Assembly: GCA_026991225.1 (NCBI GenBank)
Contig: JALXCB010000187.1
Coordinates: 1 to 33,878 of the forward strand
Origin: Anaerolineae bacterium
Lineage (GTDB): Bacteria; Chloroflexota; Anaerolineae; J102
DNA: 33,878 nt
Direction: 5' to 3'
Positions 240-33,207 of the stretch are shown piece by piece (position 1 is the first letter of the stretch; each line of letters begins with the position of its first letter). A program made the translations under genes and the position numbers. Under the pieces are notes generated by a model that searched no databases, was not told the origin of the DNA, and saw only the letters and a list, made by a program, of their open reading frames with translations.

Positions 240-247
240 GATCCGAA

Positions 248-402
248 GTAACTGCTAACGTACTTGACTTTAGACCGCCAAAAGCCACGAAGGCTCGAAG
301 TTTTTTCGAAGACACGAAGGAAAAATAATGAAAAATACGTCGTGCCTTCGATTTTCTTCGTGTCTTCGTGGCAAAAAGTGGTAGCGATACCTTAGTAGTT
401 AC
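248..402 (+). mobile_element. Family C MITE-like element, copy 1, with 8-bp TSD
   Basis: This is a 155-bp non-coding element. Its ends are inverted repeats: GTAACTGCTAACGTAC on the left, and GTAACTACTAAGGTAT when the right end is read inward. It is flanked by a perfect 8-bp direct repeat, GATCCGAA at 240-247 and 403-410. The interior is an A/T-rich palindrome built from GAAGACACGAAGG-type units. The GTAA ends and 8-bp duplication match what is reported for the IS66 family, so an IS66-mobilised MITE is inferred. No transposase lies in the window. Related copies are at 20821 and 32569. Confidence 0.8.
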
Positions 403-412
403 GATCCGAATC

Positions 413-2019: not shown

Positions 2020-2041
2020 GTCAGTGATCAGTAATCAGTGG
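2020..2041 (-). repeat. ACTGATN heptamer tract (family F) at the glycosyltransferase start
   Basis: Read on the minus strand, the tract is three ACTGATN-type heptamers (ACTGATT, ACTGATC, ACTGACC) ending a few bases before the ATG at 2014. It overlaps the stop codon of glnS. Matching tracts in the same sense precede the genes at 17829 (minus) and 24057 (plus). Confidence 0.7.
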
Positions 2042-4362
2042 TCGGCGTGGAGCGCTTCTTCGAGCAGGCGTTTGGCGACCTGGGGATCGGCCTGGCCGCG
2101 GGTGGCCCGCATGACCTGGCCCATGAAGAAACCGAACAGGCCCGTTTTGCCCGCGCGGTAGGCGGCCACCTTGTCGGGATGGGCGGCCAGCGCGTCGGCG
2201 ATGACCGCGCGCAGCGCGGCTTCGTCGCTGAGTTTGCTCATGCCGCGGGCTTCGACGATGGCTTCGGGAGCCTCGCCCGTGGCGATCATGGCGTCCAGCA
2301 CTTGCTGGCCCTGCCGCGTGTTGATGACGCCATCCTCCACCAGCTTCACCAGCCGGGCGAAGTCAGCGCCTCCAAAGGGCAGTTCGCTGACGGGGCGGTC
2401 CTTCCACGCGGCCAGCAGGCGGTTGATGAACCAGTTGGCCAGGGCCGGGCCGTTGGGATAGACTTCCATGGCCTGGTGGAAGAAGCGCACCTGGCCCAGA
2501 TCGCCGGTGATGATGTCGGCCTGCTGTTCGCTGAGGCCGGCGCGGGCCTGCAGGGTTTCGTAGGCGGCCTGGAGCTGAGGATTTTGGGCCCGAGCCCGAT
2601 TGCGGGCTTCCGAGGCGGTTTCTTTGACGGCGGGGGCGGAAACAGGTTTGGAAACCTGTTTGGAATCGGGCTTCGAGCCCGATGGTTTCTCCGCGGCGCG
2701 AGTGCGCTTCGCCCAGCTATCCCGCAGGGTGATGATGCGGTTGAAGACCAGGGCGTCGGGGCGGCTGTCCTCGCTGTCCTGGATGAAATAGCCCAGGCGC
2801 TCGAACTGATAGCGCGTCTCGGGCGGGTCGTCCAGCACGCTGGGCTCGACGCGGGCGTTGGGCATGATCTGGAGGCTCTCCGGGTTGAGATTGTCGAAGA
2901 GCGAGCCGCCTTCGGGGAAATCGTAGGGGTCGGGCGTGTTGAAGAGGCGGTCGTAGAGCCGCGCCTCCGCGGGGATGGAGCGGGCCGCGTCCACCCAATG
3001 GATGGCGGCCCACACTTTGACGCCCTCGGGCCGGGCGCCCAGGGAATCGGGCAGATAGGAGCAGCGCAGTTCGATCACCTCGCCCGTATCCGGGTCTTGC
3101 ACCGCCTCATCGCAGGTGATGACGTAGGCGTGGCGCAGGCGCACGCTGCGGCCCGGAGCCAGCCGTTTGAAGCCCTTGGGCGGGGCCAGGCTGAAGTCCT
3201 CCCGCTCGATGAAAAGCTCGCGAGAGAAGGGCACGGGCCGAGAGCCCTCCTTGGGGATGTCCCGGGGCCAGTAGCTGGCCTCGATCATCTCGCTGCGCCC
3301 TTCGGGATAGTTGGTGATGACCACCTTGAGCGGGTCCAGCACGGCCATTACCCGCGGCGCCCGATAGTTCAGGTCATCGCGAATCGTATGCTCGAACAGC
3401 GCGATCTCCACCCGGCTGTTGGTCTTGGCCACGCCCACCCGCTCCACGAACGCGCGGATGGCCTCGGGCGTGACCCCGCGGCGGCGCAGGCCCGAGATGG
3501 TGGGCATGCGCGGATCATCCCAGCCGCTGACAATCCCCTCCTCCACGAACTGGCGCAGATAGCGTTTGCTCAGCACGGTGTAATCCAGCTCCAGCCGGGC
3601 GAATTCATACTGCCGGGGCTGGGGCGGCGGGATGAGATGATCCACCAGCCAGTCGTAAATGGCCCGATTGTTCTCGAACTCCAGGGTGCAGAGGGAGTGG
3701 GTGATGCGTTCGATGCCATCGGAGAGGGGATGGGCGAAGTCGTACATGGGATAGATGCACCACGCATCGCCCGTGCGGTAGTGGGTGGCGTGCTTGATGC
3801 GATAGAGGATGGGGTCGCGCAGGAGCATGTTGGGGCTGCTCATGTCGATCTTGGCCCGCAGCACATGCGCGCCATCGGGGAACTCGCCCGCGCGCATCCG
3901 CCGGAACAGGTCGAGATTCTCCTCCACCGACCGATTCCGGTAAGGGCTCTCCCTCCCCGGCTCGGTGACCGTGCCCCGATACTCGCGGATCGCCTCCTCG
4001 CTGAGGCTGTCCACATAGGCAAGCCCCTGCTTGATGAGCTCCTCCGCGAACTGGTAGAGCTGCTCATAGTAGTCGGAGGCGAAGTAAAGATGCTCGCCCC
4101 AGTCGTATCCCAGCCAGCGGATATCGCGCTGGATGGATTCGACGAACAGCATGTCCTCGGTTTCCGGATTCGTGTCGTCGAAACGGAGGTGGCACACGCC
4201 CCCGAACTCCTCGGCGATGCTGAAGTTCAGGTTGATGGATTTGGCGTGGCCGATGTGGAGGAAGCCGTTGGGCTCGGGAGGGAAGCGGGTGGTGATGGGG
4301 CGGTCGTAGACGCCGTTTTCGATGTCTCGGGCGATGATGTCGCGGATGAAGTCTTTGGGCAT
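2035..4362 (-). CDS. glnS: Glutaminyl-tRNA synthetase with C-terminal YqeY/GatB-tail domain
   Basis: This cytoplasmic class I synthetase charges tRNA-Gln with glutamine. Residues 1-550 are the GlnRS body, with the HIGH signature at 36-39 inside PPEPNGFLHIGHAK and the KMSKS-equivalent VLSKR at 263-267. The beta-barrel anticodon-binding part follows. A low-complexity Lys/Ser/Pro linker (about 554-590) then leads to a roughly 185-residue GatB/YqeY-type helical domain, which ends in a KTGLFGFFMGQVM block typical of GatB tails. Such a fusion is established for Deinococcus GlnRS. I chose the ATG at 4362 because conserved GlnRS sequence begins there. An upstream in-frame ATG at 4455 would only add a repetitive NPNPNPDP stretch. 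No clear ribosome-binding site is visible. The linker DNA carries two perfect hairpins (see 2583-2683). Confidence 0.95.
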   Translation of the reverse strand: MPKDFIRDIIARDIENGVYDRPITTRFPPEPNGFLHIGHAKSINLNFSIAEEFGGVCHLRFDDTNPETEDMLFVESIQRDIRWLGYDWGEHLYFASDYYEQLYQFAEELIKQGLAYVDSLSEEAIREYRGTVTEPGRESPYRNRSVEENLDLFRRMRAGEFPDGAHVLRAKIDMSSPNMLLRDPILYRIKHATHYRTGDAWCIYPMYDFAHPLSDGIERITHSLCTLEFENNRAIYDWLVDHLIPPPQPRQYEFARLELDYTVLSKRYLRQFVEEGIVSGWDDPRMPTISGLRRRGVTPEAIRAFVERVGVAKTNSRVEIALFEHTIRDDLNYRAPRVMAVLDPLKVVITNYPEGRSEMIEASYWPRDIPKEGSRPVPFSRELFIEREDFSLAPPKGFKRLAPGRSVRLRHAYVITCDEAVQDPDTGEVIELRCSYLPDSLGARPEGVKVWAAIHWVDAARSIPAEARLYDRLFNTPDPYDFPEGGSLFDNLNPESLQIMPNARVEPSVLDDPPETRYQFERLGYFIQDSEDSRPDALVFNRIITLRDSWAKRTRAAEKPSGSKPDSKQVSKPVSAPAVKETASEARNRARAQNPQLQAAYETLQARAGLSEQQADIITGDLGQVRFFHQAMEVYPNGPALANWFINRLLAAWKDRPVSELPFGGADFARLVKLVEDGVINTRQGQQVLDAMIATGEAPEAIVEARGMSKLSDEAALRAVIADALAAHPDKVAAYRAGKTGLFGFFMGQVMRATRGQADPQVAKRLLEEALHADH
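2583..2683. repeat. Adjacent hairpins inside the glnS interdomain linker
   Basis: The linker codons contain two neighbouring palindromes. One is AACAGGTTT/AAACCTGTT (2641-2660, 2-nt loop) and the other is ATCGGGCT/AGCCCGAT (2665-2683, 3-nt loop). A shorter AGCCCG/CGGGCT stem lies near 2592-2610. They look like small palindromic repeats inserted in frame between the synthetase and YqeY-like domains. Confidence 0.7.
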
Positions 4363-4473
4363 GATGGGATCAGGATTGGGATTGGGATTGAGGGTTGGGA
4401 TGATGGGAATGCTGATGGCGCGGGCGTTTCGAAATGGCGCAGGTGGCGGCTGCACTTGCCACTTGCGACTTGC

Positions 4474-10509: not shown

Positions 10510-10707
10510 AAAGCGCTTTTTGAAGAAATCGTGATTGCCTTGAGAAGAAGAATGACCGCCTGTTGCGTTCGATTCCATCGCCCCGTGCGGGATTCTCCCA
10601 TGACTCGTCCACGCAATGCGTGCATTTTACGTTTCCATCGATTTCCGGTACTATTATCCCGTCCAGATCATCATCCGCACCACCCCACTATCCCGGAGGA
10701 AGGTATC

Positions 10708-11169
10708 ATGTGGCAGGAATTCAAGGAATTTTTGAAACGCGGCAATGTCATGGACATGGCCGTAGGCATTATCATCGGCGCCGCGTTTGGCGCGGTGGTG
10801 AAATCGTTGGTGGATAATGTGATCATGCCTCCCATCGGTCTCTTGCTAGGGGGCGTGGATTTCGCCAACATCATGACGGTGCTGAAACCGGGCGACCCGC
10901 CGGGCCCCTACGCCACCCTGGCCCAGGCCCAGGACGCGGGCGCGGTGGTCATCGCCTGGGGAACGTTCATCAACGCGGTGATCAGCTTCATCATCGTGGC
11001 GTTTGTCGTCTTTCTGCTGGTACGCTACTATAACCGTCTTCAGCAGGAGCCCGAACCAGCGCCTGCTGAGCCCACCACCAAGGAATGTCCCTATTGCCAT
11101 ATGGAGATTCCCATTCCCGCGGTGCGCTGCCCCTACTGCACCGCGGAGCTGGCTGAAACCGACGTCTGA
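10708..11169 (+). CDS. mscL: Large-conductance mechanosensitive channel with C-terminal zinc ribbon
   Basis: MscL opens under membrane tension to release solutes during osmotic downshock. This 153-residue protein has the N-terminal amphipathic stretch EFKEFLKRGNVMDMAVG, TM1 (about 16-42) and TM2 (about 84-107, INAVISFIIVAFVVFLLVRYYNRL). Instead of the usual short cytoplasmic helix, it ends in a Pro-rich linker and a CPYC-x10-CPYC ribbon (Cys127, 130, 141, 144). I chose the ATG at 10708 because GGAGGAAGG lies just before it and MscL homology begins there. It is followed 23 bp later by the formate dehydrogenase genes, so it may be in their transcript. A possible -10 (TATTAT) is at 10652-10657. 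Confidence 0.93.
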   Translation: MWQEFKEFLKRGNVMDMAVGIIIGAAFGAVVKSLVDNVIMPPIGLLLGGVDFANIMTVLKPGDPPGPYATLAQAQDAGAVVIAWGTFINAVISFIIVAFVVFLLVRYYNRLQQEPEPAPAEPTTKECPYCHMEIPIPAVRCPYCTAELAETDV

Positions 11170-20738: not shown

Positions 20739-20820
20739 GAATGGAAGGTTTTTGAGAGGTATGCGGAGGGAGCAGATGCGTAATCCGTAAAACGTAACAG
20801 GTTGATGCGAGATACAGACT

Positions 20821-21062
20821 GTAACTGCTAAGGTCGCACCGCCGCTTTTTGCCACGAAGACACGAAGAAAACGAAGGCACGACGTATTTTCTTTATTTTT
20901 CCTTCGTGTCATCGAAAAACTTCGAGCCTTCGTGGCTTTTGGCGGCCTAAAGTCAAGTACGTTAGCAGTTACAATTTTTCTTTATTTTCCCCTTCGTGTC
21001 TTCGAAAAACTTCGAGCCTTCGTGGCTTCTTGTGGCCTGAAATCGAGTACGTTAGCAGTTAC
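20821..21062 (-). mobile_element. Family C element, copy 2, with internal duplication and 8-bp TSD
   Basis: The outer ends are GTAACTGCTAAGGT (left) and GTAACTGCTAACGTACT (right, inward). The whole 242-bp block is flanked by a perfect 8-bp direct repeat, TACAGACT (20813-20820 and 21063-21070). A complete 152-bp element occupies 20821-20972, and its right-hand 90 bp is repeated in tandem at 20973-21062. The duplication therefore lies inside the target duplication. It accounts for most of the gap between lipA and the 21073-22083 gene, and ends 10 bp past that gene's stop. Confidence 0.82.
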
Positions 21063-21072
21063 TACAGACTTC

Positions 21073-22083
21073 TCACGTTTCACGTGTTGGCCGCGGGACC
21101 AGAGGCGCGGAGAGCATGGTTTGCAGGCCCGCGGGCATGGCCGGGACGCGTATAGCCTGGTTGACGATGATGGCGGCGGTGGCTTTGTCGCCGTGGACGC
21201 CTGTGATCTTCATGTGCAGCGTCTGGTCGCCGGTGATGAAGGTCTCATCCCGGCTGCCGCCCGCCACCCCGGCCTCCATCACCAGCTCCATGGTGATGCG
21301 GGGCTCGCCCGCGATGAGGCCCTGGGCTTCCTGGCGGACGCCTTTGCACTGGCCCGGTTCGATCCAGCCCAGGCCCGATTCGATGGCCTCCTTCGCCACA
21401 ATGGGCTTGCTCTCCACCGCCACCACGTCCAGGTCCCAACCCAGGCCCGCGGCCAGCATGTACAGGCTGTCCTTCAGGCCCACATGGCCGATCGCGCCCC
21501 GGTCGAGCTGTTCCTGCACCCAGGCCGGGTCCTTGCCCAGGCCGTTTTTCTCTTGCAAGGGGATGCGCCGCTCCAGCACGTCTACGAACCGGGCCACGTG
21601 GATGCTTTCGATATCGCTGGTGAGGCGACTGAGCAGCGCGGGCAGCGCGTCCATGATCATGCCGGGATTGACGCCCACGCCCAGCAGGGTGACGCCCGCC
21701 TTCTTCGCGGCCTCGTCCAGCTCCCGGGCCAGATCGGGGTGATCCTCCCACGGCCACACCAGCTCCTCGCAGGTGGAGACGACGTTGTACCCGCGGGCGA
21801 TGGCCTCCAAGAGCTGGCCCCGGGCCTGGGTCAGCTTGGAGACGGTGGCCTGGAGCACGACCGCGCCGGGGGGAGCCTGCACCTGGGCCAGGGAGGAGAC
21901 GATGGGCAGGTCGGGCAGGTCCGCGTCGCAGACCTGATTCAGGGTGAATTCTTGCAGCTCGGGATTGATATCCACCGCGCCTACCGAAACCAGACGCGGC
22001 TCGCTGGCCGCGGTGCGGCCGATCTGCTGGCCAATGGGGCCAAGTCCGAAGTGGATGACGGGGATGGGGTTCATGATAGTCAT
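21073..22083 (-). CDS. Dihydrodipicolinate-reductase-like NAD(P)-dependent dehydrogenase
   Basis: This 336-residue Rossmann-fold protein has HFGLGPIGQQIGR at its N-terminus as the dinucleotide-binding loop and a later GVGVNPGMIMDALP block. It resembles the dihydrodipicolinate reductase-like group that includes 2,4-diaminopentanoate dehydrogenase of clostridial ornithine degradation. It lacks the diagnostic DapB HH..KxDxPSGTA motif, so it is unlikely to be the lysine-pathway DapB. The true substrate is unknown, and no other ornithine-degradation gene is in the window. Two possible starts exist, ATG at 22083 and ATG at 22074. Neither has a Shine-Dalgarno. A family D repeat lies directly upstream. 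Confidence 0.75.
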   Translation of the reverse strand: MTIMNPIPVIHFGLGPIGQQIGRTAASEPRLVSVGAVDINPELQEFTLNQVCDADLPDLPIVSSLAQVQAPPGAVVLQATVSKLTQARGQLLEAIARGYNVVSTCEELVWPWEDHPDLARELDEAAKKAGVTLLGVGVNPGMIMDALPALLSRLTSDIESIHVARFVDVLERRIPLQEKNGLGKDPAWVQEQLDRGAIGHVGLKDSLYMLAAGLGWDLDVVAVESKPIVAKEAIESGLGWIEPGQCKGVRQEAQGLIAGEPRITMELVMEAGVAGGSRDETFITGDQTLHMKITGVHGDKATAAIIVNQAIRVPAMPAGLQTMLSAPLVPRPTRET

Positions 22084-27686: not shown

Positions 27687-27840
27687 TGCACATATCGTAA
27701 CGATCCAGGCATCCCCCCCATTAAAATCATAATGGCGCGAGGAAAAAATGAAAATGGTAAGTGACAGGTTGCCAGTAGTAGCGGGTTGCCAGTCATGATC
27801 GCTCGACCTTATACCTTGATTTGACGTGACGCCTCGGTCC

Positions 27841-28680
27841 TCAGCCCTGTAGCAGCGCTGTGACCAGTTCCCACAAATTTGCCACGATGAAGTCGGGCGG
27901 GGGTTGCAAACGCTCCGCGTCCGCGCGGCCTGATGCACCCGTCAGCGTCACCGCCGTCCACATGCCAGCCTGCTGGCCCATGCGGATATCCGTCTCCAGA
28001 CGGTCGCCCACCATGAGACAGCGTTCGGGCGGCAGGCCCAGCCGCTCCAGCGCCACTTCCACGATGATGGGCGAGGGTTTGCCCGCCAACGCTTCCACCT
28101 TTCGCCCGGTGATGTGTTTCAGAGCAGCGATGGTAGCCCCGGCGTCGGGGATGAACCCGCCGGGCATGGGGCAGGCTTTATCGGCGTTGGTAGCGTAGAA
28201 ATGAGCGCCTCTCATCAGGGCCTGGTAAGCAATATTGAGCTTGCGATAGTCCAGAGTGCGGTCAAAGGCGACGACCACGCCATCTACGCCCGAGATATCC
28301 ATCACCTCCCGGGCGTCGCCCGGCAGATCGCTGATGACATCCAACCCCTGATTGCGCATTTCCGCGAGCAGAGGCGGCTCGCCGATGACGAACAGGCGTT
28401 GGTCCGGCGCAGTGCGAGCCAGATGCCGGGCCAGCACATAGCCCGAGGTGATGACGTCGTCGGGCTCGGCGGGGATGCCCAAACGGACAAGCTTGGCCGC
28501 ATAATTCTCGCGTGGGTAAAGAGGCTTATTGCTGACAAAGAGAATACGCTTACCCGCAGTCCGCAGCGCGGCAATGGCCTTAGGGGCGGCGGGCAACGCG
28601 GCCTCGCCTAAATACACCGTGCCATCCAGGTCGAGGATGACGCCCTGGATATCGGCGGGCGTGAGGTTATTTTTCCTCAT
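27841..28680 (-). CDS. HAD superfamily IIA phosphatase (NagD / glycerol-3-phosphate phosphatase type)
   Basis: This 279-residue cytoplasmic phosphatase has Asp17 and Asp19 in ILDLDGTVYLG as nucleophile and acid/base. The FVSNKP motif II is present, as is the type C2 cap of the NagD group, Lys in the GKPSP motif and MVGDRLETDIRMG as the acidic motif IV. The start overlaps the 3' end of ugpE by 14 bp, so it belongs to the ugp operon. Members of this subgroup include phosphoglycolate and glycerol-3-phosphate phosphatases (for example mycobacterial Rv1692). Given the context, dephosphorylation of imported glycerol-3-phosphate is a reasonable inference but is not shown by sequence. The 154-bp gap to the convergent GH13-like gene shows nothing recognisable. 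Confidence 0.88.
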   Translation of the reverse strand: MRKNNLTPADIQGVILDLDGTVYLGEAALPAAPKAIAALRTAGKRILFVSNKPLYPRENYAAKLVRLGIPAEPDDVITSGYVLARHLARTAPDQRLFVIGEPPLLAEMRNQGLDVISDLPGDAREVMDISGVDGVVVAFDRTLDYRKLNIAYQALMRGAHFYATNADKACPMPGGFIPDAGATIAALKHITGRKVEALAGKPSPIIVEVALERLGLPPERCLMVGDRLETDIRMGQQAGMWTAVTLTGASGRADAERLQPPPDFIVANLWELVTALLQG

Positions 28681-29551
28681 AAAAAGACATTCCTTCGATG
28701 AGGCTGCGCTGCATGATGATGAGCAGAATCAATGGCGGTAGCGTAGCGATGAGCGCTCCAGCCATGACGATATGCCAATCCACCGCGGCGTCTGTATCCA
28801 CCAACTGCTTCAGACCGATTTGCACCACCCTGGTGCGGTCTGCGTTGGCGATGATCAACGGCCACAGATATTGATTCCACATATAGATGAACTCGATGAG
28901 GAATAGGGCGGCCATGTTAGTCTTGGAAAGAGGAATAACGATGGACCAAAAAAATTGCAGCGGACCAGCACCGTCGATGCGGGCAGCATCGGCTAGGCTG
29001 GGCGGGATGGTGCGATAGAGCTGGCGGAAGAGCAGCACGCCCGTGGCGCTGGCGAAGAAGGGGATAGTCAGGCCCTTGAAGGTGTTGATCCAGTTAAACT
29101 GATCAATAAGCTCGAAGGTGGGGACGATGCGTACGGGCAGGGGCAACATGTGAGTGATAAGGATAGTGATGAAGAAAAACGCCTTGCCCTTGAAGTTGAA
29201 ATAGACGAACGCAAACGCGGCAGTGACGCTAAGGATAATCTTGCCGATGGCCACGCTGATCGCAACCACGCAGGTGTTGAACAATAGCCGTCCCAGATTG
29301 ATACGATCCCACGCCGTATGGATGTTTTCGAAGAATGAGGAGCCGGGTAAAAATCGGGGTGGGAACTGATAGTACTGGGCGGGCGTCTGCGTGGCGATGA
29401 GAAATGCGTAAATCATCGGGAAAAGGAGGATGATCATCACGGACAGCATCGCCAGATGGGAGAAGGCTGGGGTGAGTATCCTGTTCCTCACCCTATCCCA
29501 ATTCCACGATGGTTGATGCTCTTGGGGAGAGGTCTGGATTTGTACGCTCAT
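28667..29551 (-). CDS. ugpE: Glycerol-3-phosphate ABC transporter permease UgpE
   Basis: This 294-residue inner-membrane permease has about six hydrophobic segments. The EAA loop reads DAARIDGAGPLQFFWSIVIPL, the contact site for the ATPase. It belongs to the MalG/UgpE group of carbohydrate-uptake (CUT1) permeases. Identity as UgpE rests on its partners: an UgpA-like permease, overlapping by ATGA, and a clear UgpB. No ATPase gene (ugpC) is present here, so the permeases would have to use a shared MsmK/UgpC-type ATPase encoded elsewhere. Confidence 0.88.
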   Translation of the reverse strand: MSVQIQTSPQEHQPSWNWDRVRNRILTPAFSHLAMLSVMIILLFPMIYAFLIATQTPAQYYQFPPRFLPGSSFFENIHTAWDRINLGRLLFNTCVVAISVAIGKIILSVTAAFAFVYFNFKGKAFFFITILITHMLPLPVRIVPTFELIDQFNWINTFKGLTIPFFASATGVLLFRQLYRTIPPSLADAARIDGAGPLQFFWSIVIPLSKTNMAALFLIEFIYMWNQYLWPLIIANADRTRVVQIGLKQLVDTDAAVDWHIVMAGALIATLPPLILLIIMQRSLIEGMSFYEEK

Positions 29552-30429
29552 TGATAATGCACCCTCGAGCCGGCGTAGCGGAATTGGAGAATGGTCAACG
29601 TAGCGACCATGATCAGTAGGATAATGGATTGGGCTGAGGCGTAGCCTGTATTCATGCCCTCGAAACCATCTCGGTAGAGCTTGTAGACCATGATGTCGGT
29701 GGCCCGGCCCGGGCCCCCTTCGGTGGTGATATGCACCAGACCGAAGACCTGAAAGAAGGCGTAGAGAGTGTTCATGATGAACAGGAAGAAGGTGGTGGGC
29801 GAAAGCATGGGAAAGGTGATCTTCCAGAATCGTCGCCAGGCTCCAGCGCCATCGATAGCAGCAGCTTCCAGCAGTTCCACAGGCAGGCTTTGCAGGCCCG
29901 CCAGGAAGAAGATGATGTTGTACCCTAGCATCTTCCAGGCTGCGGCCACCGAGATGAAAAATAGCGCCTGCTGTCCGTTGGTCTGATAGTTGAAGTGAAC
30001 GCCGAACAGGGTTTTGAGCAGGTGGGAAGTCAGACCGATGTTCGGGTCCATCATCTGCGCCCAGATGAGCCCGGCGATGGCGGGCGAGAGCGCATAGGGC
30101 CAGATGAGCAGGGTGCGATAGGCTCCGAATCCCCGCAATCGCTGATTCGCAACCACGGCTACGCCCATGCTCACCGCCAGCCCCAAAGCCACCACAAAGA
30201 TAGCGAATTTGAAGCTGGTGACAATGGAATTTAGATAACCGGGATCATGAAAAAGCCGGATGAAATTTTGCAGCCCAATGAAAATCTTCTTGTTGCCCAG
30301 GGGGCTGACCCGATAAAAGCTGAGATAAAGGCTTTGAATGGAGGGGATGACAAAAAAGATGAAGACAATGATAACGCTGGGGGCCAGCAGCAGATAGGGC
30401 AGCGTCTTGTTGGGAAAACGTGTCTGCAT
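29548..30429 (-). CDS. ugpA: Glycerol-3-phosphate ABC transporter permease UgpA
   Basis: This 293-residue permease has six hydrophobic segments, an EAA loop (EAAAIDGAGAWRRFWKITFPML) and a C-terminal AQSIILLIMV..LQFRYAGSRVHYQ closely resembling E. coli UgpA. It pairs with UgpE to form the membrane channel. The ATG at 30429 is preferred over an in-frame one at 30483 because the first 18 codons of the longer form translate a family D repeat tail. Its stop overlaps the ugpE start (ATGA). A 221-bp gap containing that repeat separates it from ugpB. Confidence 0.9.
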   Translation of the reverse strand: MQTRFPNKTLPYLLLAPSVIIVFIFFVIPSIQSLYLSFYRVSPLGNKKIFIGLQNFIRLFHDPGYLNSIVTSFKFAIFVVALGLAVSMGVAVVANQRLRGFGAYRTLLIWPYALSPAIAGLIWAQMMDPNIGLTSHLLKTLFGVHFNYQTNGQQALFFISVAAAWKMLGYNIIFFLAGLQSLPVELLEAAAIDGAGAWRRFWKITFPMLSPTTFFLFIMNTLYAFFQVFGLVHITTEGGPGRATDIMVYKLYRDGFEGMNTGYASAQSIILLIMVATLTILQFRYAGSRVHYQ

Positions 30430-30431
30430 AA

Positions 30432-30570
30432 ACGTAAATCCTGGATCGAAGATGGCGTCGCGTGGGTTTGTCAAAATGACCACAAGCCAGCGTCGGGTGA
30501 GTTTGCAACGGGCGTGATGCGTAATCCGTGAGGTCGTTACGCATTAGGGGCTTGGATTCCCGCGCCGTCT
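30432..30570 (-). repeat. Family D heptamer repeat, copy 6, between ugpB and ugpA
   Basis: On the minus strand: GGCGCGGGAATCCAAGC, CTAATGC-GTAACGA heptamers, the inverse GGATTACGCATCACGCCCGTTGC, and the arm ACTCACCCGACGCTGG. The tail TTTTGACAAACCCACGCGACG ends at the ugpA ATG. The tail parallels the one before fdhA (14281-14322) base for base over most of its length. Confidence 0.75.
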
Positions 30571-30650
30571 TTGCCGCGAGGTAATTTCATCGGTGACGAA
30601 AGAAAGCGGACGACGCCCGCAAGCGCCGCCCGCATTATCAAACGAACGGT

Positions 30651-32051
30651 TTACTTGCCGTGAAGCTGAGCGTAATCAGCCAAAAGCTGGTTGGATTCAG
30701 CCGCGGCGTTGTCCAAGGTCTTGCCCACGTCCTGTCCGTTGACCACAGCCTCCTCGATGGCCGTGCCCATGACATCGCGTATCTGGACGAAGGGGCCCAG
30801 AAGCACGCCCCGGGAGGCGGGGGTGTCGTTGCCGCTGAGAATCTGATTGAATGCGGTGGCGAAGTTGGGCTCCTTCTCGAACCAACCTTCCTCCTTCAGC
30901 ATCTCATAGGCGGTGTTGCTGGTGGGGAAGTAGCCGGTGCCCTTGTGCCAGATGACCGCGCGTTCGGGCGAGAAGGTGTATTTGAGGAACTCCCAGGCGG
31001 CCTCCTGCTGCGCGGGCGTGGCGGTGTCCATCACCCACAGACAGCCGCCGCCGACCACGCTGTTGCCCTTCTCATAATCGCCATCGAAGCGAGGCAGGAA
31101 CGCGGTGCCCACATTGAAATCCGCCTTCTTCAAAATGCCGCCCAGGCTGGACGTGCTCTGGAAAAGGAAGGGGAACTGCTGGGCCAGGAAGGGATCGTTA
31201 GCCTTGTATTTGCGGCCGCCATAGACCAGCACGCCTTCTTTGGCCATGCGTTGCCATTCGCCCAACACCATCTTGCCGAAGTCGCTGTTGACATAGAGCT
31301 CGGTGGCCAGGCCCGAACGGCCATTGTCATTGTTGGCGTAAAGCTGATTGTGCCACGCGTACATCTGCTCGAAGATCCAGGCGGGCCAGCCCATGGAGAA
31401 GCCGCCCTCCGCTACGCCGGCATCCATGATCTTCTTGCTGTACTCTTCCACCTCAGCCCAAGTCGTGGGCGGCTTTTCAGGGTCCAGCCCCGCTTTCTCG
31501 AACATATCCTTGTTGTAGTACAGCATGGCAGTGGAGCTGTTGAAAGGCATGCAGTACAGATTGCCGTCCACCGAATAGTACTTGCGGATGGGCTCCACCA
31601 CCTCGTTCCAGTCCACTTCCCCCTTGTTCATGGTGTAAACCGGGATGATGGCATCAGAATCGAGCATAGTGCGGGTGCCGACTTCGTACACCTGAACGAT
31701 GGTGGGGGCTTCTCCCGCCTTGTACGCTGCCAGCGCCTTGGTCAGGGTCTCAGCGTAGCTGCCGGTGTATTCGGCCTCGACCTTGTATTTGGGATATTTC
31801 TCATTGAACGTATCCACTAGGTCTTTGACCACCTCACCCCGGCTGCCGCTCATGGCGTTCCAGAACGTGATGGTGACAGGCTCCTCGCTGGCCGCGGGTT
31901 CGGCCGGTTTTTCCTCCGCGGGCGCGGCGGTGGCCTCTGCGGGCGCTTCCTGTTTTGGCGTTTCAGTGGCTGGCGGCTGTGCGCAGGCGCTCAGAACGAA
32001 GGCCATTGCCAAAACGATTGCCAGAAGAATGAAGATACGGCGGTGATTCAT
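30651..32051 (-). CDS. ugpB: Glycerol-3-phosphate-binding lipoprotein UgpB
   Basis: This 466-residue extracytoplasmic solute-binding protein has a signal peptide with a lipobox (LSAC, Cys at about 23) and a Pro/Ala/Glu-rich tether to about residue 58. Family 1 substrate-binding blocks follow: TITFWNAMSGSRGEVV, IVQVYEVGTRTMLDSDAIIPVY, PFNSSTAMLYYNKDMFEKAG, GWPAWI, VVGGGCLWVM and WHKGTGYFPTSNTAYE. The order and wording follow E. coli UgpB closely, so glycerol-3-phosphate or glycerophosphodiesters are the likely ligands. AAAGGAG sits just before the ATG. It is the first gene of the ugp set, the usual place for the binding protein. Confidence 0.92.
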   Translation of the reverse strand: MNHRRIFILLAIVLAMAFVLSACAQPPATETPKQEAPAEATAAPAEEKPAEPAASEEPVTITFWNAMSGSRGEVVKDLVDTFNEKYPKYKVEAEYTGSYAETLTKALAAYKAGEAPTIVQVYEVGTRTMLDSDAIIPVYTMNKGEVDWNEVVEPIRKYYSVDGNLYCMPFNSSTAMLYYNKDMFEKAGLDPEKPPTTWAEVEEYSKKIMDAGVAEGGFSMGWPAWIFEQMYAWHNQLYANNDNGRSGLATELYVNSDFGKMVLGEWQRMAKEGVLVYGGRKYKANDPFLAQQFPFLFQSTSSLGGILKKADFNVGTAFLPRFDGDYEKGNSVVGGGCLWVMDTATPAQQEAAWEFLKYTFSPERAVIWHKGTGYFPTSNTAYEMLKEEGWFEKEPNFATAFNQILSGNDTPASRGVLLGPFVQIRDVMGTAIEEAVVNGQDVGKTLDNAAAESNQLLADYAQLHGK

Positions 32052-32228
32052 GATAAACTCCTTTGAAATAGTGTAAAGAAGAATATATGGAAGCTTGAAG
32101 TGACGGTGGCGAGAGTTCTCTTAGATCGACTCCTCCCTGAAAAAAGTATGGGATTGGCCATGGCGTTGTAACTTCATGGATAGTCCGCCAAAGACGAAAG
32201 AATAGACGCTTGTAAGGATGCCTCCTGT

Positions 32229-32256
32229 ATGATAGCATGAAGTGACCGGACGCCAA
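32229..32256 (-). promoter_or_regulatory. Possible ugpB promoter
   Basis: On the minus strand, TTGGCG (32251-32256) and TATCAT (32229-32234) are 16 bp apart. This would give a leader of about 170 nt before the ugpB ATG. Sequence match only; no operator or pho box was recognised. Confidence 0.35.
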
Positions 32257-32299
32257 AAACGATTGTCAGCCGGGCCAATTTAAGTGCGCGTCCAGAAAT

Positions 32300-32546
32300 T
32301 AAACTAAACGCATTTTGAAATCAGGTGTTTTCGGCCTCGGCCACCCGGAGCTGAAGCTCCGGGCTACGAAACGACGCCGGGTGAACCCGGCTTCCCGCGG
32401 CGCGCGACATGCGCCATAGCCCCATTTATGGGGCGTCGTTTTTAGCCCGCAGGTTCACCTGCGGGCGGCGGCGCGGCCAGAGAATCGCCTTTCATGGATG
32501 ATCCAATGCAAACCAAAAGCCTTGGTTTCAATTTGCTTTCAGTTCA
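32300..32546 (+). mobile_element. Family A multi-hairpin element, copy 3 (247 bp)
   Basis: This copy is nearly identical to the one at 4474-4721 along its whole length, including the stems CCCGGAGC/GCTCCGGG, GCCGGGT/ACCCGGC, CCCCAT/ATGGGG and GCCCGCAGGT/ACCTGCGGGC. The left end is TAAACTAAACGC. The right end reads inward TGAACTGAAAGC, so the TA has become CA. It begins about 250 bp upstream of ugpB. The 32052-33207 gap has no gene: it holds the ugpB leader, this element, a family C element, a family B core and about 230 bp of A/T-richer sequence (32976-33207) in which I see nothing definite. Confidence 0.82.
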
Positions 32547-32568
32547 GCTCCCGTTTTTGTGCTCACCG

Positions 32569-32794
32569 GTAACTGCTAAGGTAGCCTGGTTCGGCATCGA
32601 AAATGCCTTGCCCCGAAGGCTCGAAGGGACGAAGACAATGCAGGTCTGCAAGTTTGCAGGTCGCAAGTGGCAAGTCCTTCTGGCTGCGAGGTTTTTCACC
32701 TGCTACTTGCTACCTGCCACCTGCCACTTTTCCTCTTCGCGCCTTCGTGTCATCGTGTCTTCGTGATTTTCGACCTTGCTACGTTCGTAGTTAC
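32569..32794 (+). mobile_element. Family C element, copy 3, with 8-bp TSD
   Basis: The ends are GTAACTGCTAAGGTAGC and, inward from the right, GTAACTACGAACGTAGC. The flanks are a perfect direct repeat GCTCACCG (32561-32568 and 32795-32802). This 226-bp version carries an extra interior block of seven-base GCAAGT/TGCAGGT-type repeats and their inverse (about 32640-32735) that copy 1 lacks. It separates the family A element from the family B core. Confidence 0.82.
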
Positions 32795-32802
32795 GCTCAC
32801 CG

Positions 32803-32975
32803 ACTCAAGTCGTGCGCTTCAGGCCTGCGGCCAGCCCCCCTCTTCATCTCCCCCGCAAGCGGGGAAGAACAGCGGAAGGGGATCAGATGACGGCCTCCGC
32901 CGTCCAAAACGACAACAAACAAAAGGGTCGCCGCAGGACGACCTCCGGCGCGAAGCGCCTAAAAAGCCCGAGTTA
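32803..32975 (-). repeat. Family B core, copy 3 (inverted, with an insert)
   Basis: Read on the minus strand it follows the family B core: ACTCGGGCTTTTTAGGCGC, TTCGCGCCGGAGGTCG, GGACGGCGGAGGCCGTC, CTGGCCGCAGGCCTGAAG and CGACTTGAGTCGG. An extra segment of about 50 bp with a CCCCGC/GCGGGG stem is inserted between the last blocks. The GGGTGCGTCCCA termini are missing, so this is a core relic or a related hairpin cassette. Confidence 0.7.
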
Positions 32976-33207
32976 TGAACGTTTACAAAATAATCTGGCG
33001 ATAGGATGAAGCCTATGACCTATTTAATTTGTAAAACTCTATCACTCGGCCAGTGTTGCGGCGAAAAAGGGAAGTAATTTTCAAACGCTCACTAAGCGGT
33101 AAGAATGGCAATGCGAGCAAGCGTCAACCTCGGACTTCCCAGCATTCATCTATGATACGAAGCATCTGCGCTATGAACATTCCACTTTTTCTCCGGCTCA
33201 CCGACGC

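What the first reader, a model, noticed from the sequence alone, without database searches (positions are those of the whole stretch)
248..402. Family C: three MITE-like elements, each with its own perfect 8-bp target duplication
Elements at 248-402, 20821-21062 and 32569-32794 share GTAACT-starting inverted ends. They are flanked by GATCCGAA, TACAGACT and GCTCACCG respectively, each perfectly duplicated. Three unrelated perfect duplications make transposition nearly certain. GTAA ends with 8-bp duplications are a published trait of IS66-family elements, so the inferred mobiliser is an IS66-type transposase. The unmutated duplications suggest recent movement.
Basis: partly seen in the sequence, partly recalled or inferred. 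Interest (0 to 1): 0.75.

Follow-up and report, generated by a model that had tools for sequence, protein, structure and literature searches.

The report
Abundant IS66-type miniature jumping DNA
Three short stretches of DNA in this uncultured Chloroflexota genome are copies of a tiny jumping element that lacks its own transposase; about 260 copies are scattered through the genome, they appear to have spread recently (also between related species), and their ends match a broken IS66-type (ISBst12-group) insertion sequence found in the same genome.

Summary
All three elements have GTAACT inverted ends and perfect 8-bp duplications. They belong to a large MITE population: ends GTAACTNCTAASGT occur ~280 times per strand in this 3.87-Mb Chloroflexota genome against ~5 for the reversed control. 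In a 434-kb stretch sample, 21 of 29 elements have a perfect 8-bp duplication; 0 of 812 mismatched flank pairs reach even 7/8. Extrapolated: ~260 copies, ~1% of the genome. The IS66 guess is supported and sharpened: the mobiliser is most likely a TnpC-only, ISBst12-group IS66. A broken tnpC in the same genome ends in exactly GTAACTACTAAGGT, a tnpC fragment of another genus carries the same 14 bp at its other end, and the nearest intact relatives end in GTAACTACTAAGCC with 8-bp duplications. Element 3 matches both IS ends past the inverted repeat. The three are not one sequence family: 1 and 2 are one subfamily, 3 another; 2 is a composite. Identical copies at many sites, absence from orthologous spacers, and 98-100% identity between species with ~80% identical genes indicate recent movement and exchange. 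No intact cognate transposase was found in this genus. New member of a known kind.

The parts
240..247 (.). left target duplication GATCCGAA of element 1
   Evidence: perfect copy at 403-410
248..402 (+). element 1: 155-bp MITE, subfamily 0; ends GTAACTGCTAACGT / GTAACTACTAAGGT; folds end to end (-64 kcal/mol, z -8.9); an identical copy lies at another site (G000:C149) with a different duplication
403..410 (.). right target duplication GATCCGAA of element 1; ends 2 bp before the stop codon (413-415) of a minus-strand PMT_2-type glycosyltransferase gene
20813..20820 (.). left target duplication TACAGACT of element 2
20821..21062 (+). element 2: 242-bp composite; whole subfamily-0 copy (20821-20972) followed by the right 90 bp of a second, 85% identical copy (20973-21062); junction found once in the genome
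21063..21070 (.). right target duplication TACAGACT of element 2; ends 2 bp before the stop codon (21073-21075) of a minus-strand diaminopentanoate-dehydrogenase-like gene
32561..32568 (.). left target duplication GCTCACCG of element 3
32569..32794 (+). element 3: 226-bp MITE of another subfamily; left end matches the 5' end of the broken IS66 (22/26), right end matches the 3' end of the related IS66 fragment in G010 (18/20); folds end to end (z -6.2)
32795..32802 (.). right target duplication GCTCACCG of element 3

Best explanation
These are non-autonomous miniature transposable elements (MITEs), mostly 128-300 bp. Shown: they have imperfect ~14-bp inverted ends GTAACTRCTAASGT, are flanked by 8-bp target duplications with no strict target sequence, exist in about 260 copies in this genome in several subfamilies that share little but the ends, and differ in position between congeners. 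Inferred: a DDE transposase of the ISBst12 group of the IS66 family (a single tnpC-type gene) binds the ends and inserts the element at a new site with an 8-bp stagger, whose repair makes the duplication. The element-3 subfamily is most likely an internally deleted descendant of that insertion sequence, because each of its ends continues the corresponding IS end beyond the inverted repeat; the commoner subfamilies keep only the ends around unrelated fold-back DNA. The partner gene is now broken in this genome, so present-day movement would need an intact copy missing from the draft assembly or supplied by transfer from a neighbour.
For: 8-bp duplications: 3/3 in the window, 21/29 in a 434-kb stretch sample, 0/812 in cross-paired controls. 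Copy number ~280 ends per strand vs ~5 control. The only IS66 genes in the genome are broken pieces; one (L064) ends 60 bp upstream of its tnpC start in GTAACTACTAAGGT, zero mismatches to the MITE consensus. Its pieces match Pfam DDE_Tnp_IS66, zf-IS66, DUF6444 and NCBIfam IS66 transposase. A tnpC fragment in G010 (another genus of the family; 66-74% identical to L064 over short stretches) carries GTAACTACTAAGGTAGCAAG at its 3' side. Element-3 ends: left 22/26 to the IS 5' end, right 18/20 (19/20 in L282) to the IS 3' end, each better than to the other IS end. Nearest intact TnpC-only IS66s (~1.55 kb) end in GTAACTACTAAGCC with perfect 8-bp duplications in L188 and L194, 7/8 in L189. The published ISBst12-group ISDge4 has ends GTGACTACTCAGCA/GTAACTGCTCAGCA and an 8-bp repeat (PMC12898284). 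Recent movement: 10 identical copies at 10 sites with different duplications; site 2 lacks the element in all eight congeners, and G001 has its own insertion in that spacer. Exchange: a G005 element is 98% identical to a G000 element while its flanking gene is 81%.
Against: No intact cognate IS66 in G000, and no tnpC relative at all in G006 (~300 ends per strand) or G008 (~120) by the same searches; these are draft metagenome assemblies, in which repeated 1.5-kb elements are often lost. Ends of the intact relatives differ at positions 13-14 (CC instead of GT). The commonest subfamily (element 1) shares with the IS only the inverted repeat. About a quarter of paired ends have no duplication, mostly composites, mispairings or truncated copies. 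Transposition was not observed.
Confidence: 0.9

Rival explanations
1. A transposase of a different family moves the elements; IS66 merely shares the GTAACT tips.
For: No intact cognate IS66 is found in the high-copy genomes G000, G006 and G008. Eight-bp duplications also occur in other families (IS6 and IS21 members in PMC3281130; IS256 in PMC3189936).
Against: The exact 14-bp end is found on two separate IS66 relics, and element 3 continues each IS end beyond the repeat; published and local ISBst12-group elements have GTAACT(A/G)CT(A/C)AG-type ends with 8-bp duplications. In the G000 stretches held, only two longer pairs of such ends with duplications were found (861 and 497 bp), too short to hold a usual transposase element.
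Confidence: 0.07
2. Not mobile: repeated fold-back intergenic sequences (REP/ERIC-like) spread by recombination, with duplications by chance or as part of the repeat.
For: Elements fold end to end very stably, and the three in the window lie between genes.
Against: Duplications differ from copy to copy and are perfect in 21/29 against 0/812 controls; orthologous site 2 is unoccupied in congeners; a copy lies inside another copy that has its own outer duplication (L233).
Confidence: 0.01
3. The near-identity between species reflects contamination of metagenome bins rather than transfer of the element between species (this concerns the exchange claim only, not the MITE identification).
For: The genomes are draft assemblies with 1-5% estimated contamination; the flanking coding DNA of the 100% identical G001 copy has no match in congeners.
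Against: For the G005 copy (98% identical) the flanking gene is 81% identical to G000 and 76-82% to other congeners, so that contig is ordinary congeneric DNA. Duplications differ between the species' copies; species are interspersed in the element tree.
Confidence: 0.15

Closest known systems
ISBst12 group of the IS66 family (e.g. ISDge4, PMC12898284)
   Same: GTAACT-type imperfect ends (ISDge4: GTGACTACTCAGCA / GTAACTGCTCAGCA), 8-bp duplications, single transposase gene in the broken relative
   Different: The elements here carry no transposase and are mostly 128-300 bp; ends read ...AAGGT/AACGT
MITECca01 of Cardinium (IS982-derived, 169 copies, 3.5% of the chromosome; PMC9769881)
   Same: High-copy MITE derived from one IS, with bases past the inverted repeat shared with the parent
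   Different: Different IS family; there the parent IS is still intact, here only broken pieces were found; here several subfamilies share one end type and occur across a genus
Other bacterial MITEs (Correia >120 copies, ERIC up to 711 copies; review PMC10969869)
   Same: Short elements with high and very variable copy number between relatives
   Different: Different elements; the review does not mention IS66

Membership tests
MITE | short element without a transposase gene, bounded by terminal inverted repeats | tested here: met
   mostly 128-300 bp, GTAACTRCTAASGT ends
MITE | target duplication of constant length | tested here: met
   8 bp, 21/29 perfect, 0/812 controls
MITE | ends shared with an autonomous element | tested here: met
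   exact 14-bp match to IS66 relics L064 and L273; but only broken partners were found in the family
MITE | mobilisation in trans by that transposase | not testable with these tools
   needs an assay
IS66 family, ISBst12 group (as the mobiliser) | DDE_Tnp_IS66 transposase with zf-IS66 | tested here: met
   relic and intact relative L188 match PF03050 and PF13005; NCBIfam IS66 transposase
IS66 family, ISBst12 group (as the mobiliser) | single tnpC-type gene, no tnpA/tnpB | tested here: met
   intact relatives are ~1.54-1.57 kb between ends and hold one 495-aa gene; in the relic tnpC starts 60 bp from the end
IS66 family, ISBst12 group (as the mobiliser) | ends beginning GTAA/GTGA with 8-bp duplications | tested here: met
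   L188, L194 perfect; L189 7/8
REP/ERIC-type repeats not moved by an IS66 transposase | no 8-bp target duplication | tested here: not met
   duplications present

The most novel reading that the evidence does not exclude
A genus-wide population of MITEs (up to ~300 copies per genome) moved by an ISBst12-group transposase that no longer exists intact in its hosts, kept active by being passed between species together with a transient transposase source: near-identical MITE copies in species whose genes are only ~80% identical, without a resident transposase.
Probability: 0.2. Interest if true: 0.55.

Novelty: new member of a known kind. Interest (0 to 1): 0.38.

Why it matters
In the papers held here I found no description of MITEs of the IS66 family, nor of such a family in Chloroflexota, and the ISBst12 group has hardly been studied experimentally (PMC12898284 calls its observation the first active transposition of that group). 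A set of hundreds of copies with intact duplications, very different copy numbers among congeners (about 3 to 300) and near-identical copies across species would make the spread of a non-autonomous element without a resident transposase testable. It also warns that many intergenic repeats in these genomes are mobile DNA, not regulatory motifs.

Tried and rejected
G001's IS66 was considered as the mobiliser and rejected: its ends are GTAACTATACAGGTA. Open-frame analysis of empty sites was uninformative because long spurious frames cover this genome. Carriers were sought in phages, plasmids and viral contigs without a match. Site 3 could not be compared because in G002 and G004 the syntenic blocks on either side of about 27.7-33.2 kb lie next to each other; site 1 was not compared. 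An exact pre-insertion site could not be read at site 2, as the spacers have diverged. An 861-bp pair in L063 with an 8/8 duplication was not pursued.

Full report
Observation. The three elements and their duplications are exactly as described: GATCCGAA around 248-402, TACAGACT around 20821-21062, GCTCACCG around 32569-32794. The common inverted repeat is GTAACTRCTAASGT (about 14 bp, imperfect). The genome (G000, 3.87 Mb, 201 contigs) belongs to the Chloroflexota: the best matches of a 1209-aa window protein are Caldilineae/Anaerolineae metagenome assemblies at 74-80% identity.

Genome-wide test. The pattern GTAACTNCTAASGT with one mismatch occurs 282 and 285 times on the two strands of G000, against 5 and 4 for the reversed control. 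Pairing the left flank of one with the right flank of another never gave 7 or 8 matches in 812 tries. This extrapolates to about 260 copies, about 1% of the genome. Among the first loci fetched, 41 of 53 candidate pairs had 8/8 (my count of the list). The duplicated 8-mers have no fixed sequence; positions 2-3 favour A/T.

Anatomy. Clustering 80 elements from five species gives several subfamilies that share the ends but little else: subfamily 0 (154 bp; window elements 1 and 2), subfamily 1 (142 bp), subfamily 2 (144 bp), and the element-3 type (226-256 bp in G000; 161 bp in G006). Many interiors are fold-back DNA rich in CACGAAG units; element 1 folds end to end with -64 kcal/mol (z -8.9), element 3 with z -6.2. 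Element 2 is a composite: a whole copy (20821-20972) followed by the right 90 bp of a second copy 85% identical to the matching part. The duplication brackets only the whole, and the junction occurs once in the genome, so it most likely arose in place by recombination between copies (inference). One element sits inside another (L233, 10733-10875 within 10667-10960, outer duplication GATTCCGA).

Mobiliser. IS66 transposase sequences in G000 are broken pieces on three contigs. The best, on contig C180 (L064), is frame-broken; its start lies 60 bp inside the end GTAACTACTAAGGT, which fits the MITE consensus without a mismatch. Its pieces match DDE_Tnp_IS66, zf-IS66, DUF6444 and the NCBIfam IS66 transposase. 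In G010, another genus of the family, a tnpC fragment with 66-74% identity to L064 over short stretches has GTAACTACTAAGGTAGCAAG on its 3' side. Element 3 continues these ends in the right order: its left end matches the 5' end of L064 in 22 of 26 bases (9/12 beyond the repeat; about 0.07% of random 12-mers of the genome reach that), its right end matches the 3' end of the G010 piece in 18 of 20, and each end fits the other IS end less well. Element 3's subfamily is therefore most simply an internal-deletion derivative of this IS66 lineage (inference); subfamily 0 keeps the ends only. The nearest intact relatives in the class have one 495-aa gene, ~1.55 kb between ends, ends GTAACTACTAAGCC, and 8-bp duplications (L188 and L194 perfect, L189 7/8). 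A single-gene IS66 is the hallmark of the ISBst12 group; the published ISDge4 has almost the same ends and an 8-bp repeat (PMC12898284).

Movement and age. In G000, ten copies are identical over 154 bp at ten sites with ten different duplications (one of them 7/8), and element 1 has an identical copy elsewhere. The spacer that holds element 2 lacks it in all eight congeners; G001 has a different insertion in the same spacer with its own duplication (GTTTTATC, read on the other strand as GATAAAAC). End counts per strand among congeners: G006 ~298, G008 ~122, G001 ~66, G005 ~24, G007 ~16, and 3-8 in G002, G003 and G004. Copies in other species reach 98% (G005), 99% (G008) and 100% (G001) identity with G000 copies, although the matched orthologous stretches of genes are about 73-90% identical. 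For the G005 copy the flanking gene is 81% identical to G000, so that contig is not stray G000 DNA. Species are interspersed in the tree of subfamily 0. The simplest reading is exchange of the elements between species followed by local bursts; for G001 and G008 bin contamination is not excluded.

Open point. No intact cognate transposase was found in any genome of the family held (20 genomes), including G006 with ~300 ends. Draft assemblies lose repeated insertion sequences, so this may be an artefact; otherwise the elements are orphans after a burst or depend on a transposase arriving from outside.

Neighbourhood. Elements 1 and 2 with their duplications end 2 bp before the stop codons of the adjacent genes (a glycosyltransferase-like gene and a diaminopentanoate-dehydrogenase-like gene, both on the minus strand), and element 3 lies about 500 bp upstream of a ugpB-like transporter gene. 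No effect on these genes is claimed.

Noticed in passing
window 32300-32547: A ~248-bp repeat with at least 30 copies 95-99% identical in this genome, just left of element 3; in L280 (contig C52) a copy lies inside a 497-bp GTAACT-ended element with a 7/8 duplication, as if captured by a MITE.
   Followed up: partly
window 32795-32974: A ~180-bp sequence right of element 3 matches many copies in congener G005 at 85-88% identity.
   Followed up: no
L263 about 400-700 (G001:C569): Another ~130-bp palindromic repeat (CTCACGCAAAGACGC...CTTTGCGTGAGA), with many copies in G001, G008 and G006, carries a family-C insertion.
   Followed up: no
L154/L155 (G001:C116, C114): An IS66 with an open tnpC (468 aa) and different ends, GTAACTATACAGGTA; a second ISBst12-like lineage in the genus.
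   Followed up: partly
window about 27700-33200: In G002 and G004 the syntenic blocks on either side of this region (which holds a ugp-like transporter operon) lie next to each other, so it looks like a large insertion or relocation.
   Followed up: no
L065 about 2040-4455 (G000:C100): A tnpC C-terminal fragment with a degenerate end TTAACTACTGAGG and, ~2.4 kb away, an end GTAACTGCTAACCT behind a DNA-glycosylase-like gene; no shared duplication was seen, so a passenger-carrying derivative is only a possibility.
   Followed up: partly
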